From: Rhodothermus marinus
Lineage (GTDB): Bacteria > Bacteroidota > Rhodothermia > Rhodothermales > Rhodothermaceae
Length of the DNA: 64,000 bases
Reading direction: 5' to 3'
NCBI RefSeq assembly: GCF_009936275.1
Contig: NZ_AP019797.1
Location: 1,905,890 to 1,969,889, forward strand
Positions within the stretch are counted from its first letter, which is position 1, and every line of letters starts with the position of its first letter. Both the position numbers and the translations under genes were made by a program. Below the pieces are notes generated by a model. The model had not been told where the DNA came from, did not search any database, and saw nothing but the letters and a program-made list of their open reading frames with translations. Of this stretch, positions 8,570 to 39,033 are shown in pieces.

Positions 8570-10068
8570 CAGTAACCCGGGTTCTGTTCGATGACGCCGC
8601 CGCTCTGGTCGATCACAAACTGCGGGATCGGGAAGAGCACGTGGTGCGGCTGCGCGTTGATGCCGCGACGCTGCGCGTACTCGATGAACTTGCCGTGGCG
8701 GATCAGGTCCTGGCGACGGACTCCCTCGCTGTAGAGTTCACGGCCGCGCTCGACCAGCAGCGAGTCGCGCAATTGTTCTTTCGAGGTAAACTGATCGGGC
8801 GTCCAGGGCGCCACGCCGGCCCGCTCCCGGACCATGTTCACGTACTGAAGGGCCTCGGCTGTGGGGCCGCGCTGCTCGTTGATCGCCTCGGCCAGCGACA
8901 GCAACACCTCGGCATAGCGGAAGACCGGCCAGTCGATCTCAGCTCCGGCCGAGGTGCCCAGATCGCCAATGCACTTGAGTGGAATCGCACCGCGCATCCG
9001 CTGGCGCGTGATGAGCTGCCCGCGCACGTTCGTGTAACTGTCGAGGATCGTATACAGTCGCTTATCGCCGGCTTCATACTGATCGTAGAAGTCCCAGGGC
9101 ATCCAGAAACCACCCCACCCCTGCGGCCCGGTGATCGTCTGATCGCCGACCTGTGCCGAGGCGAAATCGTTGGGGAGGATTTCCATCCAGTACCAGTTGG
9201 GCGACGAGGCGTCGGCCGGCACCGCGTAGATCAGCTCGGGATTGCGCTCCTCACAGATCTGCGTGTACTCGGGCATCAGCGTATAGCCCATGTTCATGAG
9301 CTCACGGGCCACGTTTTCCGCCTCGGCCCAGCGTTTCTCGTGCATGTAAAGCCGAAGCAACAGCATGCGGGCCACGCCCTTGCTCACCCGTCCCCAGTTG
9401 GCGGGATCGTCGTTGTATTTGTCCGGCAGGTTCGGGATGGCCTCCTGGAGATCCCGCTCGATGGCCGCCACGTATTCTTCGCGGGAAGGACGCGGCGTGA
9501 TTTCCGTGCTGTAGAGCGTGGCGGGATCCAGTTTGACGTTGACCGGCCCGAAAAAGTCGTACAGGATGTACATCAGCCAGGCCCGGAGCACCTTGGCCTC
9601 GGCGATGTAGCGGGCCTTGATGTGCTCCGGTACCGGCGCCGTGGATTTTTCGATCTTGTCGATGACGTCCGTAGCGCGGGCCACGTAGCGAATCTTCATG
9701 TAATTGGAGGCTTCCACGCCGGAGAACGTGGCCGGTCCCCAGGAGAACGTGGTGAAGGTCGGGTCCCAGCCGGTGGCGTACTCGTCGGTAGTGATTTCGC
9801 TGCGGGCCCAGTAGGTTTTGCGGTCGTGGTTGTAGAGCGCCGCATACCACTGGCCGTCGCCCAGGTCTGTCGTACCCCAGTCGGTCGAAAAAGCATTGTA
9901 GATGGCGACGACCGCGCTGTTGAAGTCGGCTTCCGACGAGAAGAAGGTCTCCGGTGTCAGTTCGCTGTACACTTCCGGCTCGAGCATATCGGAGCAGCCG
10001 ACCAGCAGCGTGCCGGTCAGTCCGATCCATGCCACGAGCCAGGCGGTCGATAGACGAAAGCGTTTCAT
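8569..10068 (-). CDS. SusD/RagB-family outer-membrane glycan-binding lipoprotein
   Basis: A 499-residue SusD-like surface lipoprotein that should lid the partner SusC transporter and bind galacto-oligosaccharides. The start at ATG 10068 gives a clean lipoprotein signal, GLTGTLLVGC followed by SDMLEPEVYSELTPETFF, the usual SusD N-terminus. The TPR-like helical pairs and the C-terminal block (QTREL-like SLLVERGRELYSEGVRRQDLIRHG, then YAQRRGINAQPHHVLFPIPQF, ending IEQNPGY) are characteristic. It sits 37 bases after susC and overlaps the GH53 start by one base. Ligand identity is inferred from the GH53 and GH35 neighbours. Confidence 0.94.
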   Translation of the reverse strand: MKRFRLSTAWLVAWIGLTGTLLVGCSDMLEPEVYSELTPETFFSSEADFNSAVVAIYNAFSTDWGTTDLGDGQWYAALYNHDRKTYWARSEITTDEYATGWDPTFTTFSWGPATFSGVEASNYMKIRYVARATDVIDKIEKSTAPVPEHIKARYIAEAKVLRAWLMYILYDFFGPVNVKLDPATLYSTEITPRPSREEYVAAIERDLQEAIPNLPDKYNDDPANWGRVSKGVARMLLLRLYMHEKRWAEAENVARELMNMGYTLMPEYTQICEERNPELIYAVPADASSPNWYWMEILPNDFASAQVGDQTITGPQGWGGFWMPWDFYDQYEAGDKRLYTILDSYTNVRGQLITRQRMRGAIPLKCIGDLGTSAGAEIDWPVFRYAEVLLSLAEAINEQRGPTAEALQYVNMVRERAGVAPWTPDQFTSKEQLRDSLLVERGRELYSEGVRRQDLIRHGKFIEYAQRRGINAQPHHVLFPIPQFVIDQSGGVIEQNPGY

Positions 10069-25447: not shown

Positions 25448-25554
25448 AGGGCCTCGAACAGGGATTGGTGAACAGGGATCGCCTTCGCATGAATTGGAAA
25501 CGCACGCAAAAGTTGCCCGGCAACTGTTGAAAAAACAACTATCCCTGCCGCGAC

Positions 25555-25618
25555 AAGCGCTTTTCTAATGAAAAGCTAAAAAAGCAGCGCTTGCTTTGAT
25601 TTTGAGAAAGCGCTTTCT
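25555..25618. promoter_or_regulatory. Three AGCGCT dyads upstream of the CBM48 gene
   Basis: AGCGCT cores occur at 25556-25561, 25586-25591 and 25609-25614. The last is centred in a perfect 14-bp palindrome AGAAAGCGCTTTCT (25605-25618), similar in form to LacI/CcpA-family operators. The middle one also forms an AAAGCA/TGCTTT stem followed by a T run on the minus strand, so part of this region may instead terminate the gene ending at 25621. Confidence 0.4.
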
Positions 25619-25620
25619 AT

Positions 25621-26877: not shown

Positions 26878-28554
26878 TCAGGCCGACTCCAGCTCTTCGG
26901 CGCGCAGCACGCGCGGATAACGGATCTGCTCCACGAGCGTCTGCACCTCCTTCGGAGGCGGCGGCGTGCGGAGCGAGACCAGAATCGTCACGATGAAGTT
27001 CAGGATCATACCGATCGTGCCCACGCCCTGCGCGTTGATGCCCAGGAAGCTGCTCAGGATCGGCTCCTCGAGGCCGAGCACGCGGTCGGCCCGCATCAGC
27101 ACGATCAGCGTAAACGTAAAGAGCAGGCCGGTCAGCATGCCGGCGATGGCCCCTTCCTTGGTGCACCGCTTCCAGAACACGCCCAGTACGATGACCGGGA
27201 AGAAGCTGGAGCAGGCCAGGCCGAAGGCAAAGGCCACCACCTCAGCCACGAAGCCCGGCGGGAAGATGCCCAGCAACCCGGCAATGATCACACCAAGGAA
27301 AATCATCACGCGGGCCACCGTCAGCTTCACATGATCGGGGGCGCTCGGGTTGATGATCTGGCCGTAGATGTCGTGCGCCATGGCCGAGCCGATCACCAGC
27401 AGCAGGCCCGAGGCCGTCGATAGCGCTGCGGCCAGACCACCGGCCGCCACCAGCCCGACCACCCAGGCCGACAGGTTGGCGATCTCCGGCGTGGCCAGCA
27501 CGATAATGTCGCGGTCGATCGTGCTGAGCAACGCAGCCGCCGTCATGCCCTCGCTCCACTCGCTCGTGCGGATCAGGCCGGTCTGCGCCCAGTTCTGGAC
27601 CCAGCTCAGATCGAGCATGCCCGTCGGCCCCAGCTCACTGAACGCGTTCAGGATATAGTAGCGGGCGAACATGGCCACAGCCGGCGCCGTCAGGTACAGC
27701 AATCCGATGAAGAACAGCGCCCAGAAGGCCGACCAGCGGGCATCCACCACGCGCCGCACCGTGTAGAAGCGCACGATCACGTGCGGCAGGCCGGCCGTTC
27801 CGGCCATCAGGGCGAACGTCACGCAGAAGACGTTCAACATGTCCCAGCTCCCCTTGAAGGGCTGGCTGTAGAAGTTGCCCAGCAGCTCGTACTGAAGCTG
27901 GTCCAGCCGCGGCAGCACTTTGCCCAGCGCCAGCTGCGGCAGCGGAATACCCGTCAGCGTGTAGGCAATGGCGAAGGCCGGGATCAGGTAGGCGATGATC
28001 AGCACGGTGTACTGGGCCACCTGCGTCCAGGTGATCCCTTTCATACCGCCCAGCACGGCGTAGAGCGAGACGATCGCCATACCGATGATCACGCCCCAGA
28101 CGATGTCCACCTGTAGAAAGCGGCTGAAGACGACGCCCACGCCGCGCATCTGCCCGGCCACGTAGGTAAAGGAGACGAACAGGGCCGCGATGGCCGCCAC
28201 CACACGGGCCGCATTGGAGTAGTAGCGTTCGCCCACAAAGTCGGGCACCGTGAACTTCCCGAACTTGCGCAGGAACGGCGCCAGCAGCACGGCCAGCAGC
28301 ACGTAACCGCCCGTCCATCCCATCAGGTAGACGGCCCCGTCATAGCCCATGAAAGAGATCAGCCCCGCCATCGAGATGAAGCTGGCCGCACTCATCCAGT
28401 CGGCGGCCACGGCCGCGCCGTTGGCAACGCTCGGAATGCCCTGCCCGGCCACGTAGAACCCGGCCGTGTCCTTCACGCGACTCCAGATGGCGATTCCGAT
28501 GTAGACGGCGAACGTAATCGCCACCCAGAAGAAAGTCCAACCAATGATGCTCAT
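26878..28554 (-). CDS. Sodium:solute symporter, acetate permease (ActP-like)
   Basis: A 558-residue SLC5-family symporter with about 13 membrane helices, expected to import acetate or other short monocarboxylates with sodium. Family segments include the N-terminal FYVAGQGIPSVANGAAVAADWMSAASFI, seen here in the pieces FYVAGQGIPSVANGAA and ADWMSAASFISMAG, then TVPDFVGERYY and VAAGGLAAALSTASGLLLV. The gene follows the DUF4212 small partner by 36 bases, the usual pairing, and a porin gene and acs lie upstream on the same strand. GGAGG lies nine bases before ATG 28554. Confidence 0.9.
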   Translation of the reverse strand: MSIIGWTFFWVAITFAVYIGIAIWSRVKDTAGFYVAGQGIPSVANGAAVAADWMSAASFISMAGLISFMGYDGAVYLMGWTGGYVLLAVLLAPFLRKFGKFTVPDFVGERYYSNAARVVAAIAALFVSFTYVAGQMRGVGVVFSRFLQVDIVWGVIIGMAIVSLYAVLGGMKGITWTQVAQYTVLIIAYLIPAFAIAYTLTGIPLPQLALGKVLPRLDQLQYELLGNFYSQPFKGSWDMLNVFCVTFALMAGTAGLPHVIVRFYTVRRVVDARWSAFWALFFIGLLYLTAPAVAMFARYYILNAFSELGPTGMLDLSWVQNWAQTGLIRTSEWSEGMTAAALLSTIDRDIIVLATPEIANLSAWVVGLVAAGGLAAALSTASGLLLVIGSAMAHDIYGQIINPSAPDHVKLTVARVMIFLGVIIAGLLGIFPPGFVAEVVAFAFGLACSSFFPVIVLGVFWKRCTKEGAIAGMLTGLLFTFTLIVLMRADRVLGLEEPILSSFLGINAQGVGTIGMILNFIVTILVSLRTPPPPKEVQTLVEQIRYPRVLRAEELESA

Positions 28555-28590
28555 GGCTCGTGCCTCCAGATTGGTTCAACGGGAGCCTCC

Positions 28591-28881
28591 TCAGTGCGCC
28601 TGCGAGGGGGGTGCCGTCGTGCCGGCGTCTTCCTCGACACCGGCCGCCCGGTCCAGCTTACCCATCATGATGGCGTAAGCCAGAATCAGCAGGATGAAGA
28701 TCATAATGCTGCCCTGCTGGGCCATCCAGAACCCCATCGGGACGCCGGCGATCTTCAGCGTGTTGAGCGGTTCGACCAGAAAGATGCTCAGCACGTACCC
28801 GACGATGAACCAGATGACCAGCAGCCAGGCGGTACGCTTGCGCACTTCCCGCCAGTACGTTTTGCGGTCCATTTGCGCCAT
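28591..28881 (-). CDS. DUF4212 small membrane subunit of sodium symporter
   Basis: A 96-residue protein with two membrane helices (AWLLVIWFIVGYVLSIFLV and GSIMIFILLILAYAIMMG) of the DUF4212 family, regularly encoded next to acetate-type SLC5 symporters and thought to be a small subunit. ATG 28881 is preferred over 28893 because GGAGG is spaced properly upstream of it. It lies between the porin gene and actP in one operon. Confidence 0.9.
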   Translation of the reverse strand: MAQMDRKTYWREVRKRTAWLLVIWFIVGYVLSIFLVEPLNTLKIAGVPMGFWMAQQGSIMIFILLILAYAIMMGKLDRAAGVEEDAGTTAPPSQAH

Positions 28882-28902
28882 GGCTTCCTCCATAGATGGT
28901 TG

Positions 28903-30132
28903 TTAGAAAAACAGAAACACGGTGAAATTCCCCCGAACGTTGGTGGCCGTCTCCGTGTCGCCGATCGGTTTGTAGCGGTCGTCGAAGCGGCTGGCATAGG
29001 CCGCCGAGGTCACTTCCAGTTCGAAGGCGAAGCGAACCGGTCCGTGGTTCAGATTCAGGCGCGGTGCCAGCCGCCAGAGCTGCTTGATGTTCGGTGCGCG
29101 GGCGGCCGTGGCCACGACCGGCCCGTCCAGGTCGCCGCTGGCCCCCTGGTTGACCAGGTAGCCCACAAACAGACCGGGAGCCACGCGCCCCGCGCCGTCG
29201 ATGTCCACCCAGCCGGAAAGCAGTTGCAGTGGCTTGAAGGCCCCGGCGTAGTAGTCCCCCTGGCGATCGGCGCTGGGCGCATAGACGTAGCCGCCCGTCA
29301 TCAGGTGATCGGTCAGATCCCCGCCGTAGGTGACCTTACCCCGCAGCGTCGCGCCCTTGCCGGCCAGCGTGAAGTAGCCCTGCACGGCCCAGGCAAAGAA
29401 ACGGTCGCCCGTGACCACCGGTCGCAGCGACTTCAGATAGGCCCCGGCCCCTACTACGCTACCGCCCTGGCTGAAGAGCTGCAGGTGCGTGTGCAGCGCC
29501 GGAAGCGCCGAAAGTTGTTGTTGCTTGATCCCCGAAACACCGTTGAAGCTGATGTCCTGAAAGGCGTCGCGCTGCCAGGCCAGCGCTCCGATGAAACGGA
29601 CGCCCTGGCCTTTCAGCGTGGCGCGAATTTGCGGCTGGCGGGCAAACGGCTGGAACGGCGCACCGGTCGTCGTCGCTACGGTACGCGGAAAAGCCGCCAG
29701 GGTAAACAGCGGCGACCACTCCTGACCGAAGAGCAATTCGGCCTGATCCCAGATCAGCCGCACAAAAGCGCGCCGCAGGCGGAAGCTGCTCTCCAGGCCA
29801 TTCTGCGGCCCGAAGAAGTCTGATTCAAAATACCCTGTCACCTGCGCCCCGAGGGCCTCCGGCAGATCGCCGATCGTCAGGCTCAGCCGCGAGAAGAACA
29901 CAAACGCCCCGAGGTTATCCGTCTCCGTGGCTTCAGATTTGGGCAACGGGAACAGGTGAAACTCCCCGTCGCGTGCAGCGGCAACCTGGCGCGTGTCGTA
30001 CAGGTACTCTGCTTTGATGAAGCCGCTGACCTTGAACGACTGAGCCCAGAGCGTCAGCGGCGCAGCCAGGAAGAGCAGCAGCAGGCCGAAACCCCGGCCC
30101 ATACCCGGCGTACGACGTAACGTGTGCTTCAT
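28903..30132 (-). CDS. Outer-membrane porin-like protein
   Basis: A 409-residue exported beta-barrel. After a signal peptide (LLLLFLAAPLTLWAQ) the sequence has alternating amphipathic strands, FKVSGFIKAEYLYDTRQ at the N-terminus, LRRAFVRLIWDQAELLFGQEW, and a terminal aromatic strand (NFTVFLFF) suited to BAM recognition. Similar proteins are seen beside acetate transport genes and probably pass small solutes across the outer membrane. A strong AGGAGGTGA ribosome site precedes ATG 30132. It heads the porin, DUF4212, actP operon. Substrate is inferred from context. Confidence 0.8.
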   Translation of the reverse strand: MKHTLRRTPGMGRGFGLLLLFLAAPLTLWAQSFKVSGFIKAEYLYDTRQVAAARDGEFHLFPLPKSEATETDNLGAFVFFSRLSLTIGDLPEALGAQVTGYFESDFFGPQNGLESSFRLRRAFVRLIWDQAELLFGQEWSPLFTLAAFPRTVATTTGAPFQPFARQPQIRATLKGQGVRFIGALAWQRDAFQDISFNGVSGIKQQQLSALPALHTHLQLFSQGGSVVGAGAYLKSLRPVVTGDRFFAWAVQGYFTLAGKGATLRGKVTYGGDLTDHLMTGGYVYAPSADRQGDYYAGAFKPLQLLSGWVDIDGAGRVAPGLFVGYLVNQGASGDLDGPVVATAARAPNIKQLWRLAPRLNLNHGPVRFAFELEVTSAAYASRFDDRYKPIGDTETATNVRGNFTVFLFF

Positions 30133-30187
30133 GAGTCACCTCCTTGGTTTGGTTCACCCGGGGAGGGACTCTCCAAAAGGCACGGGG

Positions 30188-30239
30188 CTCCGCAGGTGGC
30201 CGCCCCCCTCCCCCACAGGGCGGCCACCCGGATGCGGAG
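30188..30239. promoter_or_regulatory. Two-tier hairpin in the acs-porin gap
   Basis: An 11-bp perfect inner stem (30195-30205 with 30218-30228) is enclosed by a 6-bp outer stem (30188-30193 with 30234-30239). It lies 56 to 107 bases before the porin start, with no T run on either strand, so it looks more like a leader or mRNA-stability element than a terminator. Confidence 0.5.
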
Positions 30240-30255
30240 ACCGTGCACCCACCAG

Positions 30256-30304
30256 ACGGCGCCCGGTTCGATGGTTGGCGGCCTCGCAACCGGGCGCCGT
30301 TTTG
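30256..30304. terminator. 13-bp hairpin directly after acs
   Basis: ACGGCGCCCGGTT (30256-30268) pairs perfectly with 30288-30300. The T run (TTTT) is on the plus strand, whereas acs is on minus, so it may act as a processing or 3'-end stability structure for acs rather than a standard terminator. Confidence 0.5.
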
Positions 30305-30313
30305 TGTGCGGTG

Positions 30314-32299
30314 TCAGCGGTTGAGTCGGTTCTGCACCAGCTCTTCGACGACCGACGGATCGGCCAGCGTCGAAATATCCCCCAGGTCCTGATATTCGTT
30401 GGCCGCGATCTTGCGCAGAATGCGGCGCATGATCTTGCCAGAACGCGTCTTGGGCAGCGCCGGCGTAAACTGCAACAGGTCGATCGTGAAGATCGGCCCC
30501 AGCAAGTTTCGCACGTGCTGGATCAATTCCTTGCGGAGTTCGTCGCTGGGCTCGAAGCCCGCCTTCAGCGTCACGAAGGCGTAGATGCCCTGCCCTTTGA
30601 TCTCGTGCGGATAGCCCACCACGGCCGCCTCGGCCACCGCCTCATGCTGCACCAGCGCGCTTTCGATTTCGGCCGTGCCCAGACGGTGACCGGAGACGTT
30701 GATCACGTCGTCGACGCGGCCCACGATCCAGTAATAGCCGTCCTCGTCCCGACGCGCGCCGTCCCCGGTGAAGTACTTGCCCGGAAAACGGGTGAAGTAG
30801 GTCTCTACGAAGCGATCATGCGCCTTGTAGACCGTGCGCATCTGGCCGGGCCACGAATCGAGAATGACCAGCATGCCGTCGGCCGGCCCTTCCAGGATGT
30901 TCCCGTCGTTGTCCACGATGGCCGGCTGGATGCCGAAGAACGGCAGCGTGGCCGAGCCCGGCTTGAGCGGCGTGGCGCCCGGCAGCGGCGTAATCATGAT
31001 ACCGCCCGTTTCGGTCTGCCACCAGGTGTCCACGATCGGGCAGCGTTCTTCGCCCACCACCCGGTAGTACCAGAGCCAGGCTTCCGGATTGATCGGCTCC
31101 CCGACCGTGCCCAGCAGCCGGAGCGACTTGCGGCTCGTCTTCTTCACCCACTCGTCGCCTTCGCGCATCAACGCCCGAATGGCCGTGGGTGAGGTGTACA
31201 GGATATTCACCTGGTATTTGTCGACCACCTGCCAGATACGCGACGGATCCGGGTAGTTCGGTGTGCCCTCGAAAAGCACTTCGGTCACGCCGTTGGCCAG
31301 CGGCCCGTAGACGATGTAGCTGTGGCCTGTCACCCAGCCGATGTCGGCCGCGCACCAGTAGACGTCGCCGTCGTGATAGTCGAAGACGAGCTGGTGCGTG
31401 AGCGAGGTGTAGACCAGATAGCCGCCGGTCGTATGCACCACGCCCTTGGGCTTGCCGGTCGAGCCCGAAGTGTAGAGGAAAAAGAGCGGATCTTCGGCAT
31501 CCATCACCTCGGGCGGGCACTCGGCCGAAACGGTCTGGATTTCCTCATGATACCAGCGGTCGCGGCCTTCCACCCACGGGATGTCGCCGCCCGTGCGACG
31601 CACGACCAGCACGGTCTTCACGTCCGGGCAACGTTCGAGCGCCTTATCGGCATTCCGTTTGAGCGGCACGCGACGCCCGGCCCGGAGCCCCTCGTCGGCC
31701 GTGATCAGGTAGGTCGCCTCGCCGTCCAGAATACGATCGGCCAGCGAGTCGGGCGAAAAGCCCGCAAAGACCACCGAGTGGATCGCCCCGATCCGTGCGC
31801 AGGCCAGCATGGCGTAGATGGCTTCCGGGATCATGGGCAGGTAGATCGTCACCCGGTCGCCTTTCTTCACGCCGTGCTTTTTGAGCACATTGGCCAGCCG
31901 GCAGACCTCTTCGTAGAGCTGGCGGTAGGTGATCGCCTTGCTCTCTTCGTTCGGATCGTCCGGCTCCCAGTAGAAGGCCACCTGGTCGGCCCGCTTTGCC
32001 AGATGGCGGTCGATGCAGTTGTAGGCCGCGTTCAGTTTGCCGCCCTCGAACCAGCGGATGTAGAGCTTCGAGGGGTCGTACGACGTGTTTTTAACCGTAT
32101 GGAACGGCTCGAACCAGGTGATGCGCTGGGCCTGCTCGCGCCAGAAGCCTTCCGGATCTTTGATGGAGCGCTCGTAGAGCTCACGATATTGCTCCATCGA
32201 GCTAATGAAAGCCCTTTTGCGAAACGCTTCCGGAGGATCGAAGACCAGTCCGCGTCCCGAGAAGGCCGCCGTTTCTCTGATCGTTTCCTGAACACCCAT
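30314..32299 (-). CDS. acs: Acetyl-CoA synthetase (acetate-CoA ligase)
   Basis: A 661-residue AMP-forming enzyme activating acetate through acetyl-AMP to acetyl-CoA. The P-loop [20 protein letters not shown], here in its [12 protein letters not shown] core, the core motif [26 protein letters not shown], and the C-terminal catalytic lysine segment [11 protein letters not shown] are all present; that lysine is the usual target of regulatory acetylation. GAGGAG precedes ATG 32299. Upstream is an AT-rich promoter region with a TATAAT and a 20-bp palindrome. The gene is followed by the porin and symporter operon and preceded by a sensor operon, which together form an acetate module. Confidence 0.97.
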
Positions 32300-32421
32300 G
32301 GCTCCTCTTTATTTATTCCTACTTAAGAATAAGTTGATTCTCTGGCTTTCCGCTCCGCTTTTTTACCTGTGAAAGATTTATTTAATGTTATAAAAAATTT
32401 TCGCAAGAGATGCAAGAGGGG

Positions 32422-32447
32422 ATTATAATATTCCTGTACAGGAATAT
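32422..32447 (-). promoter_or_regulatory. 20-bp perfect palindrome abutting a TATAAT, upstream of acs
   Basis: The perfect dyad ATATTCCTGTACAGGAATAT spans 32428-32447. On the minus strand it is followed at once by TATAAT (32427-32422). It lies about 130 bases before the acs start and just after the stop of the degenerate kinase gene. A weaker dyad with arms TTATTC and GAATAA is at 32313-32332, nearer the acs start. The position suggests an operator for acs. Confidence 0.6.
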
Positions 32448-32454
32448 CTTTTTC

Positions 32455-33402
32455 TCAGGAAAAGATTGGCAGTACCAGACGCAAGCGTGCGCCCCGGGCG
32501 TCACGCTGCACCCAGAGATCGGCTTCGTGCCAGGCCAGCACTTCCGAAAGCGTCAGCGACAGCCCCTGTTCATCCAGCGTCAGCGTCTGCGTCAGCCAGC
32601 GCTGCAGGCGCTCCGGAGGCAGTCCCCGCCCCTGCCAGCACAGATCGATCCAGAGCAGCCTTTCGTCGCTTTCGGCCAGCAGCACCCATTCTCTGCCCCG
32701 GGGTAACGCCTGGTGAAGTTGCCGCCCCAGTAGCTCCCAGAGCCGGGACCAGAGCCGCCGGTCTGCCTGCACGATACCGGCGGGACACGCGGCCGCTATC
32801 CGCACGCGCCGGGCGTCCTGCTGCAGCGCCGCGGCCATCAGTTGCAGCAACGCGGCGGCCGGCATACGCTCCAGCGGCCAGTGAGCCTGCAGGTACCGGG
32901 TGTAGGCCGAAACCGTTTGCTCCAGCAGCCGGGCCAGCGCTTCCGTCTGGTCCAGAATGATGTGCCGAAACTGCGCCGCCAGGTCTGGCGCCATATCGGG
33001 ATAGGAGGCGAGCGTCTCGATCGCGGCCCGGATGTTGGCGACCGGCCGCCGCAGCCCTTCCAGCAACTGCTGTAACAGCAGCGGCTGCCACTCGTCGGAT
33101 CGGCTGGAAGCCGGCCGAACCTGCAGCACGAACTCCTCCCCACCGGCCAGCGGCCAGGCCTGCACCGACAGCAGTCGGCCTTCCGGGCTGCGCACATGGC
33201 CGGTGGCTTCCGTCGGCGGCCAGGGCAATCCGGGCAAAACGGCCGGCAATCTGGCTTCGGTCCCTTCGTCGGCGGGCAGCGCCAGCCACTTCCGGGCCCG
33301 CCGATTGGCCCACAGGACACGTCCTGCCGCATCGCAGAGGATCACTCCGTCCGGCAGCACCTCCAGTGCGGCCGCCAGTTTACTTGCGTTCGGCGTCTTC
33401 AA
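32455..33402 (-). CDS. PAS/histidine-kinase-like protein lacking the phospho-acceptor histidine
   Basis: A 315-residue soluble protein. No ATG fits; I take TTG 33402, which overlaps the receiver-gene stop as TTGA. Residues about 10-105 are a PAS-like fold (LEVLPDGVILCDAAGRVLWANRRARK). Residues 108-170 mimic a DHp dimerisation helix, but the H-box position HELRTPL reads EGLRRPV, so glutamate 115 replaces the histidine. The C-terminal region ends GLSLTLSEVLAWHEADLWV ... GARLRLVLP, like an HATPase domain with the glycine-rich lid largely lost and the DxGxG box reduced to WQGRG. It is therefore a likely pseudokinase. It is last in the arsR-crbS-like operon, just upstream of acs. Confidence 0.75.
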   Translation of the reverse strand: MKTPNASKLAAALEVLPDGVILCDAAGRVLWANRRARKWLALPADEGTEARLPAVLPGLPWPPTEATGHVRSPEGRLLSVQAWPLAGGEEFVLQVRPASSRSDEWQPLLLQQLLEGLRRPVANIRAAIETLASYPDMAPDLAAQFRHIILDQTEALARLLEQTVSAYTRYLQAHWPLERMPAAALLQLMAAALQQDARRVRIAAACPAGIVQADRRLWSRLWELLGRQLHQALPRGREWVLLAESDERLLWIDLCWQGRGLPPERLQRWLTQTLTLDEQGLSLTLSEVLAWHEADLWVQRDARGARLRLVLPIFS

Positions 33403-33797
33403 GGCTGCTCCGCTTCTCCAGACCGGTTCAGCAGAGTGCGCACGGTCTCCATCACTTCGCGAATGGCAAACGGCTTGACGATGTAGGCGTCGGCCCCGAC
33501 GGCCCGGCCTTTTTCCAGGTCGGTCTCCCGCCCGCGCGCCGTCACCAGCACCACCTTGATGGCCTGTCCGTCCGGACCCGCCTTGAGCTGCCGGCACACC
33601 TCAAACCCGCTCATTCCCGGCAGCATGACGTCGAGCAAGACCAGGTCGGGCGGCACATTCCGGCAGGCCTCCAGCGCCGCCTCGCCGTCTTCCACAACAT
33701 GGGCTTCATATCCCTCCTGCTCCATCAGAAAGCGCAGCGACAGCGCAATACTGGGTTCGTCTTCAACGATCAATACGCGGGGTGTCTGGCCGGTCAT
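33399..33797 (-). CDS. Receiver-only response regulator
   Basis: A 132-residue protein that is a single REC domain: acidic pocket E12-D13, phospho-acceptor D56 in LVLLDVMLPGMSGF, the conserved T in VVLVTARG, and the lysine in DAYIVKPF. There is no DNA-binding output domain. It lies six bases after the SLC5-histidine kinase gene and overlaps the degenerate kinase gene by four bases, so the kinase probably phosphorylates it, and the signal must pass on by protein contact. In Vibrio and Pseudomonas the CrbS kinase instead works with CrbR, which has a LuxR-type DNA-binding domain. Confidence 0.93.
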   Translation of the reverse strand: MTGQTPRVLIVEDEPSIALSLRFLMEQEGYEAHVVEDGEAALEACRNVPPDLVLLDVMLPGMSGFEVCRQLKAGPDGQAIKVVLVTARGRETDLEKGRAVGADAYIVKPFAIREVMETVRTLLNRSGEAEQP

Positions 33798-33803
33798 TGC
33801 ATT

Positions 33804-36563
33804 TTACAGATTCAGCCGTGAAGTGTCGCGCATAGGTTGGGGCATACCATCAGACGCCGGCAGGCGTGGCAGCGTGAACGAAAAGGTAGCCCCGTGACCG
33901 GGATCGCTCTCGACCCAGATACGGCCGTGGTGATGCTGCACGATGCGCTGGGCGATGGCCAGTCCCAGCCCGGTGCCCGGCGGCCGCCTGCCAGTGCTCG
34001 TGTGCACCTGCCGGAATTTATCGAAAATCGTAGCCTGATCCTCGGGGGCAATGCCCGGACCGTTGTCCTCCACGTCCACACGCACCCGGTCGGGCTCCAC
34101 CAGCAGCCGCACGGCAATGCGCCCGTCCTCCGGGTTGCAGAACTTGACGGCGTTCGAGAGCAGGTTCAACAGCACCTGCACCAGCTGATCGCGGTCGCCC
34201 AGCACGTAGCAGGGCGTCTCGGGGACAGAAACCGTCAGCGTGATTTCGTTGAACTGAACATGCGGCTGAATGGCCTCGACGGCCTCTTCGATCACTTCCT
34301 GCATGCGCACCGGCTCCAGGTTCAATTCCACGGTGCCCGACTCCAGCTTCTGGAGCGTCAGTACCTGGTTGATCAGCCGGGTCAACCGCTCGGCCTCTTT
34401 GATGATGATGCCCAGAAACTCCTGGCGTTGCGCTTCGGGCAGATTCGGATTGGCGTGCATGATCTCGCTGAAAGCCCGGATCGAAGTCAGCGGCGTGCGC
34501 AGCTCGTGGGTGATCGTCGAGATGAACTCGTCTTTGAGCCGGTCCAGTTCTTTGAGGCGCTCGTTGGCCGCCTGCAGCTCGCGCGTGGCCCGTTCCAGCT
34601 CGGCCGACTTCCGTTCCAGTTCGTGGCTGTAGGCGATCACCTGCTGCGTCTCGTCTAGAATGTCCATGACCTCACGCAGGCTCAGCGGCTCCTCCTTGAC
34701 CACCGAAGCGATCAGCACCCGGGCCGAGGCCGATCCGATGGCACCGGCCAGTAGTCGCTCGGCGTGCTGCACCACCTCGGCCGTTGCGGTCACCGTACCC
34801 CCACCCTGCGCCAGTACCGGACGCAGCGCTTCGTCCGCCTGCTTTTTGCCCAGAAACCGCCGCAACAGCTGTTGCAGATCCGACACGTAGGCGGTCCCGC
34901 GCCAGGTGGCCTCGCCCGGCCGCCCCGACAGGCGAAACACGTCCACGAACGCCCGCGCCTGCAGCAGCTCCTCCACGCGCTGCTGCGTGAACAGCGACAC
35001 GCCCACGTACAGCCCCGCATTGAACAGCAGGCTCCAGAAGAGCGCATGCGAGATCGGATCGAAGCCTTCCAGTCCGAACAATTGGTACGGACGCAGCCAG
35101 CCGACGCCCCATGGACCGTTTTCGATGAACGAGACCGGCAACAGGCCGGCGTCGACCAGCGACGGCAGCGGGAGCGTGTAGCCCCAGATCAAAAAGCCGG
35201 CGATCAGCCCGCAGAGCGCGCCGGCCCGCGTGCCACGCCGCCAGTACATCCCTCCCAGTATCGCCGGCGCAAACTGCGCGACCGCGGCAAAGGAAATCAG
35301 CCCGATCGAAACCAGCGCATAGGCATGCGCAATGGCGTGGAAGTACAGATAGCTCAGCAACAGCACCAGGACTATCCCTCCCCGACGAATGCCCAGCAGC
35401 AGCCCGGTGAGCCGTCCACGTTGCGCCAGCCTCAGAAAGCGAATGCGCAGCAGGATGGGCATGATCAGATCGTTGCTGATCATAGTGCTGAGCGCCACGG
35501 TGGCCACGATGACCATGCTGGTGGCCGCCGAAAAGCCGCCGATGAAGGCCAGCAGCGCCAGCAGCTCCTGCCCGTGCGCCAGGGGAATCGCCAGCACGAA
35601 CATGTCGGCATCGACCTGACCGCCCGGAAAGGCCATCAATCCGGCCAGCGCAATGGGCAACACGAACAGGTTGATCAGCCACAGATACAGCGGGAACAGC
35701 CAGATCGCCTTGCGCAGGTGGCGCTCGTCCACGTTCTCGACGACGGCCACCTGGAACTGGCGGGGCAGAAATAGAATGGCCAGCATGGCCAGCAGCGTCA
35801 TCCAGAACCACTGACCGTAGGCGCCCGGCCCGAGCGCCTCTTCCATGGTCAGCAGCCGGCGGAACTCCGGGCGGGCCAGCGCGCGGCCAAACAGATCGGC
35901 CGGTCCGTCGTAGAGCCCGAACGTCACAAACAGACCGACCGCCACAAATGCCGGGAGCTTCACCAGCGACTCGAAGGCGATGGCCGCTACCAGCCCTTCG
36001 TGACGCTCGGTGGCGTCCAGATGGCGCGTCCCGAACAGAATCGAAAACAAGGCCAGCGCCAGCGTCACGTACAGTGCCGTGTCGTCCAGCAGGCTTTCGG
36101 TCGGAGTCGGGGTGGGACGCCCGCTGAGCACTTGAAAGCTGACGGAAATGGCCTTGAGCTGAAGCGCGATGTAGGGCACGCCGCCGGTGACGGCGATCAC
36201 GGTCACCAGGGCGGCCAGACCGCTGCTTTTGCCGTAGCGCGAGGCCACAAAGTCGGCGATCGAAGTGATCCGGTACACCTTGCTGATCCGGATCATCTTT
36301 CGCAGCACCATCCACCAGAGCACGGCCGTCAGCGTGGGCCCCAGATAGATGGGCAGATACCCCACACCACTGCTGGCCGCCCGTCCCACGCTCCCGTAAA
36401 ACGTCCATGCCGTGCAGTAGACGGCCAGCGAGAGCGCATAGATGTACGGGCTGCTGATGATGCTTCGGCCCTGCTCGGCCCGCCGATCGCCATACGTGGC
36501 AATGGCGAACAGCAGGCCGATGTACAGCAGCGCGATGAGGAAGATGAAGCCGCCCTGGAGCAT
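33804..36563 (-). CDS. SLC5 symporter-STAC-histidine kinase (CrbS-like acetate sensor)
   Basis: A 919-residue membrane sensor. Residues 1-530 form a 12 to 13-helix sodium:solute symporter domain (ALSLAVYCTAWTFYGSVG, then IGGFSAATSMVIVATVALST). Residues about 555-620 match a STAC linker domain. A coiled coil (645-680) leads to the DHp domain with H686 in ITHELRTPLTSIRAFSE and an intact HATPase (NLLSNAVKF, DVEDNGPGIAPED, GTGLGLAIAQRIVQHHHG). The architecture is that of CrbS, which senses acetate or couples its transport to signalling and controls acs. It lies three bases after a small membrane protein gene and six before the receiver gene. Acetate as ligand is inferred. Confidence 0.93.
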   Translation of the reverse strand: MLQGGFIFLIALLYIGLLFAIATYGDRRAEQGRSIISSPYIYALSLAVYCTAWTFYGSVGRAASSGVGYLPIYLGPTLTAVLWWMVLRKMIRISKVYRITSIADFVASRYGKSSGLAALVTVIAVTGGVPYIALQLKAISVSFQVLSGRPTPTPTESLLDDTALYVTLALALFSILFGTRHLDATERHEGLVAAIAFESLVKLPAFVAVGLFVTFGLYDGPADLFGRALARPEFRRLLTMEEALGPGAYGQWFWMTLLAMLAILFLPRQFQVAVVENVDERHLRKAIWLFPLYLWLINLFVLPIALAGLMAFPGGQVDADMFVLAIPLAHGQELLALLAFIGGFSAATSMVIVATVALSTMISNDLIMPILLRIRFLRLAQRGRLTGLLLGIRRGGIVLVLLLSYLYFHAIAHAYALVSIGLISFAAVAQFAPAILGGMYWRRGTRAGALCGLIAGFLIWGYTLPLPSLVDAGLLPVSFIENGPWGVGWLRPYQLFGLEGFDPISHALFWSLLFNAGLYVGVSLFTQQRVEELLQARAFVDVFRLSGRPGEATWRGTAYVSDLQQLLRRFLGKKQADEALRPVLAQGGGTVTATAEVVQHAERLLAGAIGSASARVLIASVVKEEPLSLREVMDILDETQQVIAYSHELERKSAELERATRELQAANERLKELDRLKDEFISTITHELRTPLTSIRAFSEIMHANPNLPEAQRQEFLGIIIKEAERLTRLINQVLTLQKLESGTVELNLEPVRMQEVIEEAVEAIQPHVQFNEITLTVSVPETPCYVLGDRDQLVQVLLNLLSNAVKFCNPEDGRIAVRLLVEPDRVRVDVEDNGPGIAPEDQATIFDKFRQVHTSTGRRPPGTGLGLAIAQRIVQHHHGRIWVESDPGHGATFSFTLPRLPASDGMPQPMRDTSRLNL

Positions 36564-36566
36564 GGC

Positions 36567-36773
36567 TCAGGGATTTTCCTCCGGCGGGGTCGTCCGACGT
36601 CGCTCCATCAGCCAGATGAGCAGGCCGATCACCAGGGCCCACACGCCGTAAAGGTACACGTACAGCACGGGCATCCCCAGCAGCAGACGCTCCCGGCTGA
36701 AGAGGGACAGCAGCGGAAAGTTCATCAGCAGCAGGCCCAGCACAAAGAGGGCCACGAGGCGCGCGCGTGTCAT
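36567..36773 (-). CDS. Small two-helix membrane protein in CrbS-like operon
   Basis: A 68-residue protein beginning MTRARLVALFVLGLLLMNF, with two hydrophobic helices (about 5-25 and 30-55, the second GMPVLYVYLYGVWALVIGLL) and a charged tail. ATG 36773 overlaps the arsR stop as ATGA, and only three bases separate its stop from the sensor kinase start. Small proteins of this kind are commonly seen in front of SLC5-kinase genes and may assist the transporter domain; function is not established. Confidence 0.8.
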   Translation of the reverse strand: MTRARLVALFVLGLLLMNFPLLSLFSRERLLLGMPVLYVYLYGVWALVIGLLIWLMERRRTTPPEENP

Positions 36774-37102
36774 GGCGGTGTTCCGTCCGGTGGAGCTTCC
36801 AGGCTCCGGCACAGCAGCAGGAACAGTCCGGCCAGCGAAGGATCGGCCAGCCGGTAGCGCACATGCACTCCGTCACGGCGCCGCTGCACCAGTCCTTCGC
36901 GGGCCAGCTGGTTCAGGTGCTTGCTCACGTTCGGCTGCCGCAGGCCCAGCGCATCGACCATCTCCTGGACGCTCAGCTCGCCGTGCGTGCGCAGCAGATT
37001 CAGCAGTCGCAACCGTACCGGATCGCCCAGCACCCGTAACCGGCGTGCGGCCGGTTCCAGCAGGGTTTCGGGCACCAGCGGTGCCTGTTCGACCACGCCC
37101 AT
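36770..37102 (-). CDS. ArsR-type winged-helix transcriptional regulator
   Basis: A 110-residue regulator with the ArsR winged helix: RRLRVLGDPVRLRLLNLLR, recognition region VQEMVDALGLRQPNVSKHLNQLAREGLV, and wing RRDGVHVRYRLAD. The metal-binding ELCVCDL-type cysteines are absent, so a non-metal signal is likely. ATG 37102 matches the family N-terminus; the frame extends to 37168 without family likeness. It is the first gene of the sensor operon (arsR, small membrane protein, kinase, receiver, pseudokinase) and divergent from the exonuclease gene. It may control this locus or acs, which would fit the palindrome upstream of acs. Confidence 0.9.
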   Translation of the reverse strand: MGVVEQAPLVPETLLEPAARRLRVLGDPVRLRLLNLLRTHGELSVQEMVDALGLRQPNVSKHLNQLAREGLVQRRRDGVHVRYRLADPSLAGLFLLLCRSLEAPPDGTPP

Positions 37103-37182
37103 CCCGGATTGCCTTTCAGGATTCTGCTGTTTTGTTTCTATCTTACAGCGTAACGCGCCGAAAATCAAATGCCCACGGCTTT

Positions 37183-39033
37183 ATGCCGCTGTCGGCTCGC
37201 TTCTGGAAAACCTACGCCGTGCTGGCGCTGCTGGGCCTGCTGCTGCTGGCCGCGCCCAACCTGATCTGGTGGCTGAGCGCTTCGCCCTCGGAACGGGCCT
37301 GGCTGCTGGCACGCTATCCGTTTCTGCTGGTGCTCATCGTGCTGGTGCTGGGCGGCATCTATGCGCTCTGGCTGCATGTGTACCAGACGCACGTGCGCCC
37401 GATCGCTCAGCTCACCGATGCGATCCATCAGGTACTGGATGGCCACACGCTGCCGCCCCTCCCGCAGGCCAGCACCCGCGAACTCCGAAAACTGCAGGAA
37501 GCGGTGACCGAACTGGCCCGCCGCCATCGCCTCCAGTCCATAACCCCGGCTGCCGCTCCCCTTCATCGCGAGCGCAACCTGCTGGCCACGCTGCTGGGCG
37601 AGTTGCCCGAAGCCGTGCTCGTATGTCGAACCTCCGGCCAGATCCTGCTCTATAACGAAACGGCCCGCCGCCTGCTCGAGACGCCCGAGCATCCGGGCGC
37701 CATTGGCCTGGGCCGCTCCATCTTTCACAGCCTGGATCGGGACCTGATCGTCTTCGCCCTGGACGAACTGGCCTATCGGTTGCGCCAGCAACATCCCCGT
37801 CCCACCGTCCATTTCGCCACCTGCCTGCCTTCAGGGCAACTTGTGCGCGTGCAGGCCGCCCCGATCCGCGACGAAGCGGACCGCCTGGAAACCTTCATGC
37901 TGCTCCTGCAGCCGCTCCGCTCAGAAGCCGAACCGTTCGAGATCATCCGAGGGGCCGATCTGCTGCAGGCCCTGGACCTGCAGCTCCGGGAAGCTGGCGT
38001 TTCGCTCCAGCTCGAAGGCGTCACGGGCACCCTCTGGCTCCGGGTTCGCCTGCCTGAGGCCTTCGAAGCGCTCCGGCGACTGGCCTTCGAGTTACGTCAG
38101 GAAACTTCCTGCACGCAACTACTGGCTCGCACCACCTCGGAAAATGGCCGCGTGCATCTGTGGCTTCGTCCGCTCGATGGTCACCCGCAAGCACTCGAAC
38201 GGCTGCAACCCTATGTGCAGGAACCCTCTCTGCAGGCGCTCCTTCAGGAACATCAGGCCACCCTGCAGCTCGACGGCGAGGCCCTGCGCCTGACGCTTCC
38301 GGCCTCGCCGCCCCCGCACTCGGGTGCCGCGCGGGCCTTTCTGCCCGGACCCTCGGCCGCGCGTCGTCCGATTTATGCCGATCTATCCCTGCTGGAAACC
38401 TCCGAGGCCACGCCGCTCGACGATCGCCCGCTGCGCAGCCTGATCTACACGGTCTTCGATACCGAAACCACCGGCCTGCATCCTGAGCAGGGCGACGAAA
38501 TCATCGCCATCGGTGCCGTCCGCATCGTCGGCGGCCGCATCCGCCCCGAGGAAACCTTCGACCAACTCGTCAATCCTCGTCGACCGATCTCGCTCGATTC
38601 GGTGCGCGTGCACGGCATTCAGCCCGTCCTGCTTCAGGACAAGCCACCGATCGAAGAAGTGCTCCCGCGCTTCTATCGCTTTGCCCGGGATACCGTGCTG
38701 GTGGGCCACAACGTGGCTTTCGATCTGAAATTCATCCGTCAAAAAGAAAAAGCACTGGGCCTGCACTTCGACCAGCCGGTGCTCGATACGATGTTGCTGG
38801 CGGCCGTGGTCGATCCGGAACGTCAGCATTACGGATTGGATGAGCTGGCTGCGGCTTTCGGAATCGAACCGGTGGGGCGACACTCGGCCCTGGGCGACGC
38901 GCTGATTACGGCCGAGCTGCTCCTGCGTCTGCTGCCCCTGCTTGAGCAGCGCGGCATCCACACCCTGCGCCAGGCCCGCGAGGCGATCCAGCAGTCCCGA
39001 CCGGCCCGCAACCGCTACGGGCGCATCTCCTGA
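37183..39033 (+). CDS. Membrane PAS/kinase-like protein fused to DnaQ-type 3'-5' exonuclease
   Basis: A 616-residue fusion. Two membrane helices (about 11-30 and 43-63) lead to a HAMP-like linker and a PAS-like domain (LPEAVLVCRTSGQILLYNETARRLLE, seen from about 141). Residues 250-375 are weakly like a degraded kinase ATPase region. The C-terminal 190 residues are a DEDDh exonuclease of the DnaQ/PolC type: D426 and E428 in VFDTETTG, D514 in GHNVAFDLKF, H567 and D572 in RHSALGDA. Similar exonucleases occur beside CrbS-type kinases and acetate genes in proteobacteria; their role is unknown. It is divergent from arsR and overlaps the parA-like gene tail by 19 bases. Confidence 0.85.
   Translation: MPLSARFWKTYAVLALLGLLLLAAPNLIWWLSASPSERAWLLARYPFLLVLIVLVLGGIYALWLHVYQTHVRPIAQLTDAIHQVLDGHTLPPLPQASTRELRKLQEAVTELARRHRLQSITPAAAPLHRERNLLATLLGELPEAVLVCRTSGQILLYNETARRLLETPEHPGAIGLGRSIFHSLDRDLIVFALDELAYRLRQQHPRPTVHFATCLPSGQLVRVQAAPIRDEADRLETFMLLLQPLRSEAEPFEIIRGADLLQALDLQLREAGVSLQLEGVTGTLWLRVRLPEAFEALRRLAFELRQETSCTQLLARTTSENGRVHLWLRPLDGHPQALERLQPYVQEPSLQALLQEHQATLQLDGEALRLTLPASPPPHSGAARAFLPGPSAARRPIYADLSLLETSEATPLDDRPLRSLIYTVFDTETTGLHPEQGDEIIAIGAVRIVGGRIRPEETFDQLVNPRRPISLDSVRVHGIQPVLLQDKPPIEEVLPRFYRFARDTVLVGHNVAFDLKFIRQKEKALGLHFDQPVLDTMLLAAVVDPERQHYGLDELAAAFGIEPVGRHSALGDALITAELLLRLLPLLEQRGIHTLRQAREAIQQSRPARNRYGRIS

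What the first reader, a model, noticed from the sequence alone, without database searches (positions are those of the whole stretch)
26878..39033. Acetate module joining transport, activation and an SLC5-kinase signalling set
On one strand lie arsR, a small membrane protein, a CrbS-like SLC5-STAC-histidine kinase, a receiver-only protein, a degenerate kinase, acs, a porin, DUF4212 and ActP, with a membrane PAS-DnaQ exonuclease divergent. CrbS systems normally use CrbR, which binds DNA. Here the regulator has no output domain and the next gene is a kinase-like protein without its histidine. This suggests a rewired acetate signalling pathway, perhaps acting through ArsR or through the kinase-like protein.
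Basis: partly seen in the sequence, partly recalled or inferred. Interest (0 to 1): 0.76.

Follow-up and report, generated by a model that had tools for sequence, protein, structure and literature searches.

The report
Acetate sensor, receiver and pseudokinase module
Next to a bacterium's acetate-use genes sits a membrane sensor kinase, a bare receiver protein and a dead copy of the kinase that in other bacteria is fused to a nuclease or a nucleotidyltransferase, which suggests an unrecognised way of passing the acetate signal to an enzyme.

Summary
In detail: all ten genes lie where stated, and the set is conserved in Rhodothermus and relatives. A receiver without an output domain is the rule, not a local accident, for this non-hybrid class of SLC5-type kinases (18 of 20 gammaproteobacterial loci, 22 of 22 other loci tested). 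The 'degenerate kinase' is a real family: PAS plus a pseudokinase resembling the receiver-docking helices of its own partner kinase. None of 44 distinct members has the phospho-accepting His (mostly Glu or Lys). Elsewhere the same protein is fused to a DnaQ-type exonuclease or to a DUF294 nucleotidyltransferase. In Rhodothermus the docking part and the exonuclease sit in two genes, and the divergent membrane exonuclease has lost the docking helices. The likeliest scheme is DivK/DivL-like: kinase, receiver~P, pseudokinase, enzyme. Independently, an inverted repeat, usually paired, precedes acs in 15 of 15 Rhodothermia genomes with the kinase but 2 of 41 without it. So acs transcription is tied to the module, by a DNA-binding protein not identified; ArsR is not the general answer.

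The parts
37183..39033 (+). Membrane PAS-DnaQ exonuclease: 2 TM (by eye), HAMP-like, PAS, degenerate kinase C-domain, DEDDh exonuclease; lacks the DHp helices
   Evidence: RNase_T 3.2e-38; DEDDh residues invariant; profile positions 122-193 missing
36770..37102 (-). ArsR-type winged-helix protein without conserved Cys
   Evidence: crbS-locus clade with moderate support, 94/91
36567..36773 (-). Small two-helix membrane protein, ends 3 bp before the kinase gene; a similar ORF lies near the kinase in most relatives' loci
33804..36563 (-). CrbS-like SLC5-(STAC)-histidine kinase, non-hybrid, catalytic residues intact
   Evidence: His in 41 of 41 aligned homologues (40 distinct)
33399..33797 (-). 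Single-domain receiver, phospho-acceptor Asp and Lys intact
   Evidence: Asp and Lys in 35 of 35 receivers (34 distinct)
32455..33402 (-). PAS-pseudokinase; His replaced by Glu, ATP-binding boxes lost; overlaps the receiver stop codon
32429..32446 (.). Operator A, TATTCCTGTACAGGAATA, upstream of the acs promoter
32387..32415 (-). Predicted acs promoter TTGCAT-17-TATAAC (conserved in the genus by eye)
32314..32331 (.). Operator B, 115 bp from operator A
30314..32299 (-). acs, acetyl-CoA synthetase
   Evidence: TIGR02188 1043.6 bits, cut-off 724.95
28903..30132 (-). Porin-like outer-membrane protein (by eye; no family hit)
   Evidence: no hit; conserved neighbour
28591..28893 (-). DUF4212 small symporter subunit
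   Evidence: TIGR03647 91.9 bits, cut-off 26.05
26878..28554 (-). VC_2705-family sodium:solute symporter
   Evidence: TIGR03648 750.8 bits, cut-off 320.75

Best explanation
The locus encodes a conserved three-step signal path bolted onto acetate uptake and activation. Step 1 (inferred from intact motifs): the SLC5-type kinase senses a carboxylate or its transport and autophosphorylates. Step 2 (inferred): it phosphorylates the adjacent single-domain receiver. Step 3 (inferred; the central claim): receiver~P docks on the pseudokinase, whose DHp helices resemble the kinase's own docking helices but cannot accept or donate phosphate, as DivK~P docks on DivL in Caulobacter. The PAS-pseudokinase then changes the activity of a nucleotide-handling enzyme: a DEDDh exonuclease or a DUF294 nucleotidyltransferase on the same chain in other bacteria, and in Rhodothermus probably the divergent membrane exonuclease in trans. 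In parallel, acs transcription is controlled through an inverted-repeat operator, usually paired, that in Rhodothermia is nearly confined to genomes with the module; the protein that binds it is unknown. Shown by sequence: homology, loss of His, intact kinase, receiver and nuclease residues, co-occurrence, operator co-inheritance. Not shown: every biochemical step, the enzyme's substrate, acetate as the signal.
For: Pseudokinase aligns to the catalytic part of its neighbour kinase with probability 99.4, E 3.4e-21, Glu opposite His. No His at that column in 45 of 45 rows with the region (44 distinct: E 29, K 9, T 2, G, V, N, Q 1 each). Its DHp profile scores 33-52 bits on 45 of 45 non-hybrid kinase ORFs with both parts, 0 on 10 of 10 hybrid CrbS. 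Receivers keep Asp and Lys in 35 of 35, kinases His in 41 of 41. Fusions to intact DEDDh exonuclease or to DUF294+DUF294_C. In 369 sampled genomes of one proteobacterial class the fusion is in 15 of 20 with a non-hybrid kinase, 0 of 21 with only a hybrid-type kinase, 7 of the other 328; in 14 of those 15 it lies in the same fetched locus as the kinase. Complementary loss: 6 of 6 Rhodothermia exonucleases examined have no detectable DHp; it is deleted in four and replaced by a linker in L041 and L052. Precedent for receiver-to-pseudokinase flow: DivK/DivL, PMC5361649 (passages read). A plain exonuclease, PP_0353, belongs to the P. putida MxtR/ErdR (CrbS/CrbR) targets and its loss slows growth on pyruvate, PMC9927547 (passages and two sections read).
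Against: 5 of 20 non-hybrid genomes have no detected fusion, and 7 of 369 genomes have a match without a kinase at the threshold used; one of these, G385, looks like an ordinary kinase. In the 60-genome sample of the order the divergent exonuclease was found only in the genus Rhodothermus (5 of 60), and otherwise in L041 and L052, so other Rhodothermia pseudokinases have no obvious enzyme partner. Six of the 45 DHp rows have unusual helices there. P. putida PP_0353 deletion had no acetate phenotype. Five Planctomycete kinases also score 26-34 bits with the DHp profile, though they were fetched by the same motif.
Confidence: 0.5

Rival explanations
1. The module works mainly by transcription: the kinase (through its receiver or an unlinked CrbR-like regulator) controls a protein that binds the operator at acs, and the pseudokinase is only a phosphate sink, phosphatase cofactor or scaffold that tunes the kinase.
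For: Operator upstream of acs in 15 of 15 kinase-bearing Rhodothermia genomes (two sites in 12) against 2 of 41 without it, p 8e-12; 7 against 27 lineages, p 7e-6. Sites 115-116 bp apart in five Rhodothermus genomes. The own genome encodes at least five REC-GerE regulators, two of them with no kinase gene seen in the short fetched locus. CrbR controls acs in Pseudomonas (PMC5715377, passages).
Against: Does not explain fusions of the pseudokinase to nuclease or nucleotidyltransferase, nor why its docking helices are conserved while catalytic residues are lost. No CrbR-like gene among the genes of the locus.
Confidence: 0.3
2. ArsR is the output: it represses acs by binding the two operators, and the signal releases it, perhaps through receiver or pseudokinase contact.
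For: ArsR heads the operon and is conserved in Rhodothermia loci with the operators, except those of the f3 family and the contig-edge locus L040; it forms its own clade (94/91); its recognition region differs between Rhodothermus (TATTCC half-sites) and the others (TATTAC), by eye.
Against: Genomes G008, G022, G032 have kinase, receiver, pseudokinase and acs operators, but their single ArsR hits (E about 1e-19 to 1e-20) fall outside this clade and are unlinked. No operator match at the arsR promoter. No ArsR match in the fetched stretches of 20 of 20 gammaproteobacterial loci.
Confidence: 0.2
3. Ordinary neighbours: a CrbS-like two-component system beside acetate genes, the kinase-like gene decaying and the exonuclease unrelated.
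For: The kinase-like gene is less conserved within the genus than its operon neighbours (63-66% identity in L012-L014 against 80-95% for crbS, rec and acs).
Against: Family with a conserved docking motif across phyla, 10 of 10 co-occurrence, fusions, complementary domain loss.
Confidence: 0.05

Closest known systems
CrbS/CrbR (MxtR/ErdR) of Vibrio and Pseudomonas
   Same: SLC5-type sensor kinase in control of, or next to, acs and a solute symporter; exonuclease and CBS-domain genes among the Pseudomonas targets (PMC9927547)
   Different: Kinase here is non-hybrid (919 aa, no receiver domain), has a separate receiver without output, no CrbR-like gene in the locus, and a pseudokinase; the two kinase classes separate
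DivK/DivL of Caulobacter
   Same: Single-domain receiver and a kinase-fold protein with PAS whose His is replaced (PMC5361649)
   Different: No sequence membership tested; there the partner is another kinase (CckA), here a nuclease or nucleotidyltransferase; substitution Tyr there, mostly Glu or Lys here
PP_0353/PP_0354 of P. putida (exonuclease and CBS-domain protein)
   Same: An exonuclease and a CBS-domain gene linked to CrbS/R-controlled acetate genes; CBS-DUF294 genes also occur beside the kinases here (L049, L139)
   Different: There under transcriptional control of ErdR; in the fusions here the enzymes carry the PAS-pseudokinase on the same chain. That PP_0354 is a DUF294 protein is recalled, not read
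VC_2705-type symporter with DUF4212 subunit
   Same: Members by curated cut-off
   Different: Nothing notable

Membership tests
CrbS/CrbR system | SLC5 symporter domain fused to histidine kinase with catalytic residues | tested here: met
   SSF, HisKA, HATPase_c; His 41 of 41
CrbS/CrbR system | STAC domain between them | not testable with these tools
   no STAC model rang in Pfam or NCBIfam; position and length fit
CrbS/CrbR system | Hybrid kinase with C-terminal receiver | tested here: not met
   non-hybrid class separates from hybrid-type
CrbS/CrbR system | LuxR-type CrbR binding an ACTU motif at acs | tested here: inconclusive
   none in the locus; GerE proteins exist elsewhere; operator differs in spacing from the ACTU sequences listed in PMC5715377
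Histidine kinase (the kinase-like gene) | Phospho-accepting His | tested here: not met
   0 of 44 distinct family members
Histidine kinase (the kinase-like gene) | ATP-binding N and G boxes | tested here: not met
   Trp in place of the G1 Asp, GxGLGL absent, in the alignment to the partner kinase
DivL-type receiver-binding pseudokinase | Kinase fold with PAS and retained DHp, His lost | tested here: met
   by sequence profiles only
DivL-type receiver-binding pseudokinase | Preferential binding of phosphorylated single-domain receiver | not testable with these tools
   needs binding assay
DEDDh (DnaQ-type) exonuclease | Exo I, II, III motifs with D-E-D-D and H | tested here: met
   invariant in the 12 sequences; PDB hits to PolC and epsilon
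ArsR/SmtB metalloregulator | Conserved metal-binding Cys | tested here: not met
   no Cys conserved across the 11 aligned sequences; other metal ligands not tested

The most novel reading that the evidence does not exclude
A two-component system whose output is an enzyme that acts on nucleic acid or nucleotides: the transport-coupled kinase phosphorylates a bare receiver, which switches a PAS-pseudokinase derived from that same kinase and thereby a membrane 3'-5' exonuclease (or, in Desulfobacteraceae, a nucleotidyltransferase), giving post-transcriptional or post-translational control of carboxylate uptake and use. In Rhodothermus the receptor and the enzyme have been split into two genes that work in trans.
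Probability: 0.4. Interest if true: 0.85.

Novelty: new variant of a known kind. Interest (0 to 1): 0.66.

Why it matters
It gives the exonuclease and DUF294 genes that appear beside acetate transporters a testable job, and it offers a second case of a signal flowing from receiver to pseudokinase, here ending on an enzyme instead of another kinase. The pseudokinase resembling the partner kinase's docking surface makes the interaction directly testable. The operator at acs, present or absent with the module in otherwise similar genomes, is a ready natural experiment for finding the missing DNA-binding protein.

Tried and rejected
Operator binder: ArsR looked attractive but fails for G008, G022 and G032. 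Of eight hits away from acs whose surroundings I read, six lie inside ORFs of at least 90 aa; the two outside are L291 (own genome, one mismatch) and L296. No N6-spaced operator was seen upstream of acs in the six proteobacterial loci read; L048 has one N3-spaced repeat, L049 had no upstream sequence, L038 no acs match, and the acs starts are uncertain.

Plasmid tblastn with the pseudokinase found nothing. Apparent receiver fusions in L130, L131 and L179 look like over-long ORFs around stand-alone receivers. Planctomycete loci L060-L064 look like ordinary kinases fetched by motif. The DUF294 gene of the own genome sits beside unrelated genes, so it was not made part of the scheme. My own note that PP_0353 deletion affects acetate growth was wrong; the paper reports pyruvate only. 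My note put the third operator match in a 1524-aa ORF; it is in a 766-aa ORF.

Counts mended: one search used 42 kinase-less genomes; the rows are 41. Of 43 kinase-less genomes with acs I did not fetch upstream DNA for G030 and G054; the p-value was redone. L019 and L050 are the same gene, and L056 and L170 the same locus; distinct counts are given.
Full report
What is there. The window lies in a 3.43 Mb single-contig genome of the genus Rhodothermus: a same-genus genome, G006, carries the 41,078-base contig that the public record titles 'Rhodothermus sp.'. Two labels need care: the symporter is a VC_2705-family member, not the ActP equivalog, and the porin has no family hit.

Conservation. 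In 60 relatives of the same order (own genome included) the CrbS-like kinase is found in 10, the kinase-like gene beside it in those same 10 (an eleventh hit, G010, is a weak 51-residue match), and the divergent PAS-DnaQ protein in the 5 kinase-bearing Rhodothermus genomes only. Two Rhodothermus genomes, G001 and G005, have none of the three. In G005 the site reads lnt-parA-acs-cbm48-rlmI: the module genes on both sides of acs are absent there and acs remains. The run arsR to symporter recurs in Longimonas halophila (L046) and Rhodothermaceae Tc-Br11 (L052, with the divergent exonuclease), and as far as acs in a Bacteroidetes MAG (L041, contig ends). In G035 the pseudokinase has moved to head the divergent acs-porin-DUF4212-symporter run. 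In G043 and the three f3 genomes the kinase set is not linked to acs.

The receiver without output is the rule. Testing each locus for a receiver that ends 117-132 codons after its start, within about 3 kb of the kinase, gave 9 of 9 relatives' loci, 14 of 14 loci from named contigs (one of which, L056, is the same locus as L170), and 18 of 20 gammaproteobacterial loci with a non-hybrid kinase; the two misses, L134 and L147, are on contigs under 10 kb. Aligned receivers keep the acceptor Asp and the Lys in 35 of 35 (34 distinct).

Two classes of kinase. The sample was 369 genomes from the class of G071, a Burkholderiales MAG (Gammaproteobacteria in GTDB, recalled); 41 have a match at 1e-100. 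In 20 genomes the match is (nearly) full length and the frame 893-1045 aa (non-hybrid). In the other 21 it stops between residues 627 and 670 and most frames are 1133-1342 aa (hybrid type, three are 984-1009). Three of the 20 have both.

What the kinase-like gene is. A scan of named genome contigs with its profile gave 28 loci. Five (L060-L064) look like ordinary Planctomycete kinases. Outside Rhodothermia the relatives are long proteins (665-816 aa where not cut by a contig end): PAS, pseudokinase, then either a DnaQ-type exonuclease with its DEDDh motifs (L038, L039, L047, L048, L055, L056, L058, and one protein of L049) or, in the Desulfobacteraceae proteins, DUF294 plus DUF294_C, confirmed by Pfam for the two tested, L044 and L049. 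In the 369-genome sample the fusion query matched 22 genomes: 15 of the 20 with a non-hybrid kinase, 0 of the 21 with only a hybrid-type one, 7 of the other 328, of which G385 looks like an ordinary kinase. Fisher gives 2e-7 for the first contrast; genomes are related, so this overstates independence. In 14 of the 15 the fusion lies in the same fetched locus as the kinase; in G378 it is on another contig, beside a receiver. L049 has both fusion types with DUF4212 and the symporter between them.

Why it is a pseudokinase resembling this kinase. Profile comparison with the neighbouring kinase's catalytic part gives probability 99.4 and E 3.4e-21, with Glu opposite the His, Trp opposite the G1 Asp and no G2 box. 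Of 57 aligned segments 45 have the His column and none has His: 44 distinct sequences, E 29, K 9, T 2, G 1, V 1, N 1, Q 1. The best-conserved stretch is the H-box and what follows, R.PLA.IRAAIE: Arg 44 of 45, Ala 43 and 44 of 45, Glu 43 of 45. A profile of only the two helices scores 33-52 bits on 45 of 45 non-hybrid kinase ORFs that hold both parts (some genes occur in two loci; one partial ORF, L027, scored 17) and nothing on 10 of 10 hybrid ones. Ten other kinase ORFs in the fetched loci score 0-9, while the five Planctomycete kinases fetched by the same motif score 26-34. In a protein that has lost the phosphate-handling residues, conservation of the surface that receivers dock on points to docking (inference). 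PDB relatives by sequence are mostly ordinary kinases and their PAS domains.

The exonuclease partner. The window's divergent membrane protein aligns with the pseudokinase over PAS and the degenerate C-domain (probability 98.0, E 1.6e-13), and its DnaQ domain keeps the catalytic residues. In four of four Rhodothermus proteins (window, L012-L014) the DHp stretch, from about profile position 117-121 to 193-196, is deleted outright. In L041 and L052 a stretch of similar length remains, but it is a low-complexity linker with no hit to the DHp profile even with filters off. So one protein has the docking helices and no enzyme, the other the enzyme and no docking helices; elsewhere one chain has both. 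I read this as a split of an ancestral one-chain protein whose halves may act in trans (inference).

Control of acs. Two inverted repeats, TATTC-N8-GAATA, lie 115 bp apart between the pseudokinase gene and acs, with a TTGCAT-17-TATAAC promoter between them (by eye). This exact pattern occurs three times in the 3.43 Mb genome; the third is inside a 766-aa ORF. Spacing is 115, 116, 115, 115, 115 in five Rhodothermus genomes although the bases between half-sites differ (the first two as sums of listed steps). Using TATT(A/C)C-N6-G(T/G)AATA with at most 2 of 12 mismatches from 280 bp upstream to 30 bp inside acs, 15 of 15 kinase-bearing Rhodothermia genomes have a site (12 have two) against 2 of 41 kinase-less ones, both with 2 mismatches; expectation from shuffles was 0.00-0.07 per sequence. 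The half-sites were chosen after seeing eleven of these promoters; G008, G022, G032 and G043 and the kinase-less genomes were read afterwards. Fisher 8e-12, or 7e-6 when collapsed to 7 and 27 lineages, the 7 being my own grouping. The contrast holds inside the genus Rhodothermus (G001, G005) and between G035 and G014 of one genus. What binds the site is open. ArsR of this operon is the tempting candidate, but three genomes with sites lack that clade, whose support is moderate. The site also differs in spacing from the CrbR ACTU sequences listed in PMC5715377. The own genome has REC-GerE regulators without an evident adjacent kinase.

Literature. V. cholerae CrbS is a hybrid kinase whose receiver domain is not needed for acsA transcription (PMC5436829, passages including part of the abstract). 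In P. putida, PP_0354 (CBS domain) and PP_0353 (exonuclease) form an operon; PP_0354's promoter is bound by ErdR; PP_0353 deletion slows growth on pyruvate, not acetate, and the authors speculate on mRNA degradation (PMC9927547, sections 7 and 8 read). DivL binds DivK~P and signal flows from receiver to pseudokinase (PMC5361649, passages). CbrX, a small protein translated just ahead of the SLC5 kinase CbrA, is needed for CbrA translation by coupling (PMC6591292, passages); the small membrane gene here sits in the same place, but homology was not tested. In the listings of my searches (25 of 120 shown; 27: 16 of 16; 79: 12 of 67; 93: 10 of 6,014; 94: 4 of 4) I saw no title or abstract start describing a pseudokinase-nuclease fusion in a CrbS-like system. 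These lists are capped and the library lacks most subscription papers; I did not read the paper that first described the STAC domain.

Verdict. Real, conserved and more interesting than described: not a rewired CrbS/R in one organism but a widespread non-hybrid branch with its own receiver and, often, a pseudokinase wired to nucleotide enzymes. The mechanism is inferred throughout.

Noticed in passing
window 25530-25620, and L040, L041, L046, L051, L052 upstream of acs: GAAAGCGCTTTC-type palindromes upstream of the cbm48 gene and similar AAGCGCTTCC sequences downstream of the predicted acs promoter in other Rhodothermia; they resemble LacI/CcpA-family sites (resemblance recalled).
   Followed up: no
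L165 (own genome 2646654) and G002, G003, G004, G006: A DUF294 protein (best E 2.5e-42 to 1.3e-43) is present in the same five Rhodothermus genomes that have the kinase, not linked to it; G001 has only weaker hits and G005 none. In the own genome two nearby ORFs are a chorismate-binding/aminotransferase protein and an SNF symporter. Orthology not tested.
   Followed up: partly
L017, L018, L019: In the three f3 genomes the kinase set lies next to two genes that look like PTS HPr and enzyme I (by eye from ORF starts), not next to acs.
   Followed up: no
L168 and L169: G043 and G012 carry a DUF294-like gene beside a short plain DnaQ-like gene, recalling PP_0354/PP_0353, away from the kinase locus.
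   Followed up: no
L291, about 8040-9700: ORFs made of repeated 'IPAGAG...DYPRGCGGT'-like units, perhaps a translated CRISPR array.
   Followed up: no
L139: A gammaproteobacterial locus reads kinase, receiver, CBS-DUF294 nucleotidyltransferase, with no pseudokinase in between.
   Followed up: no
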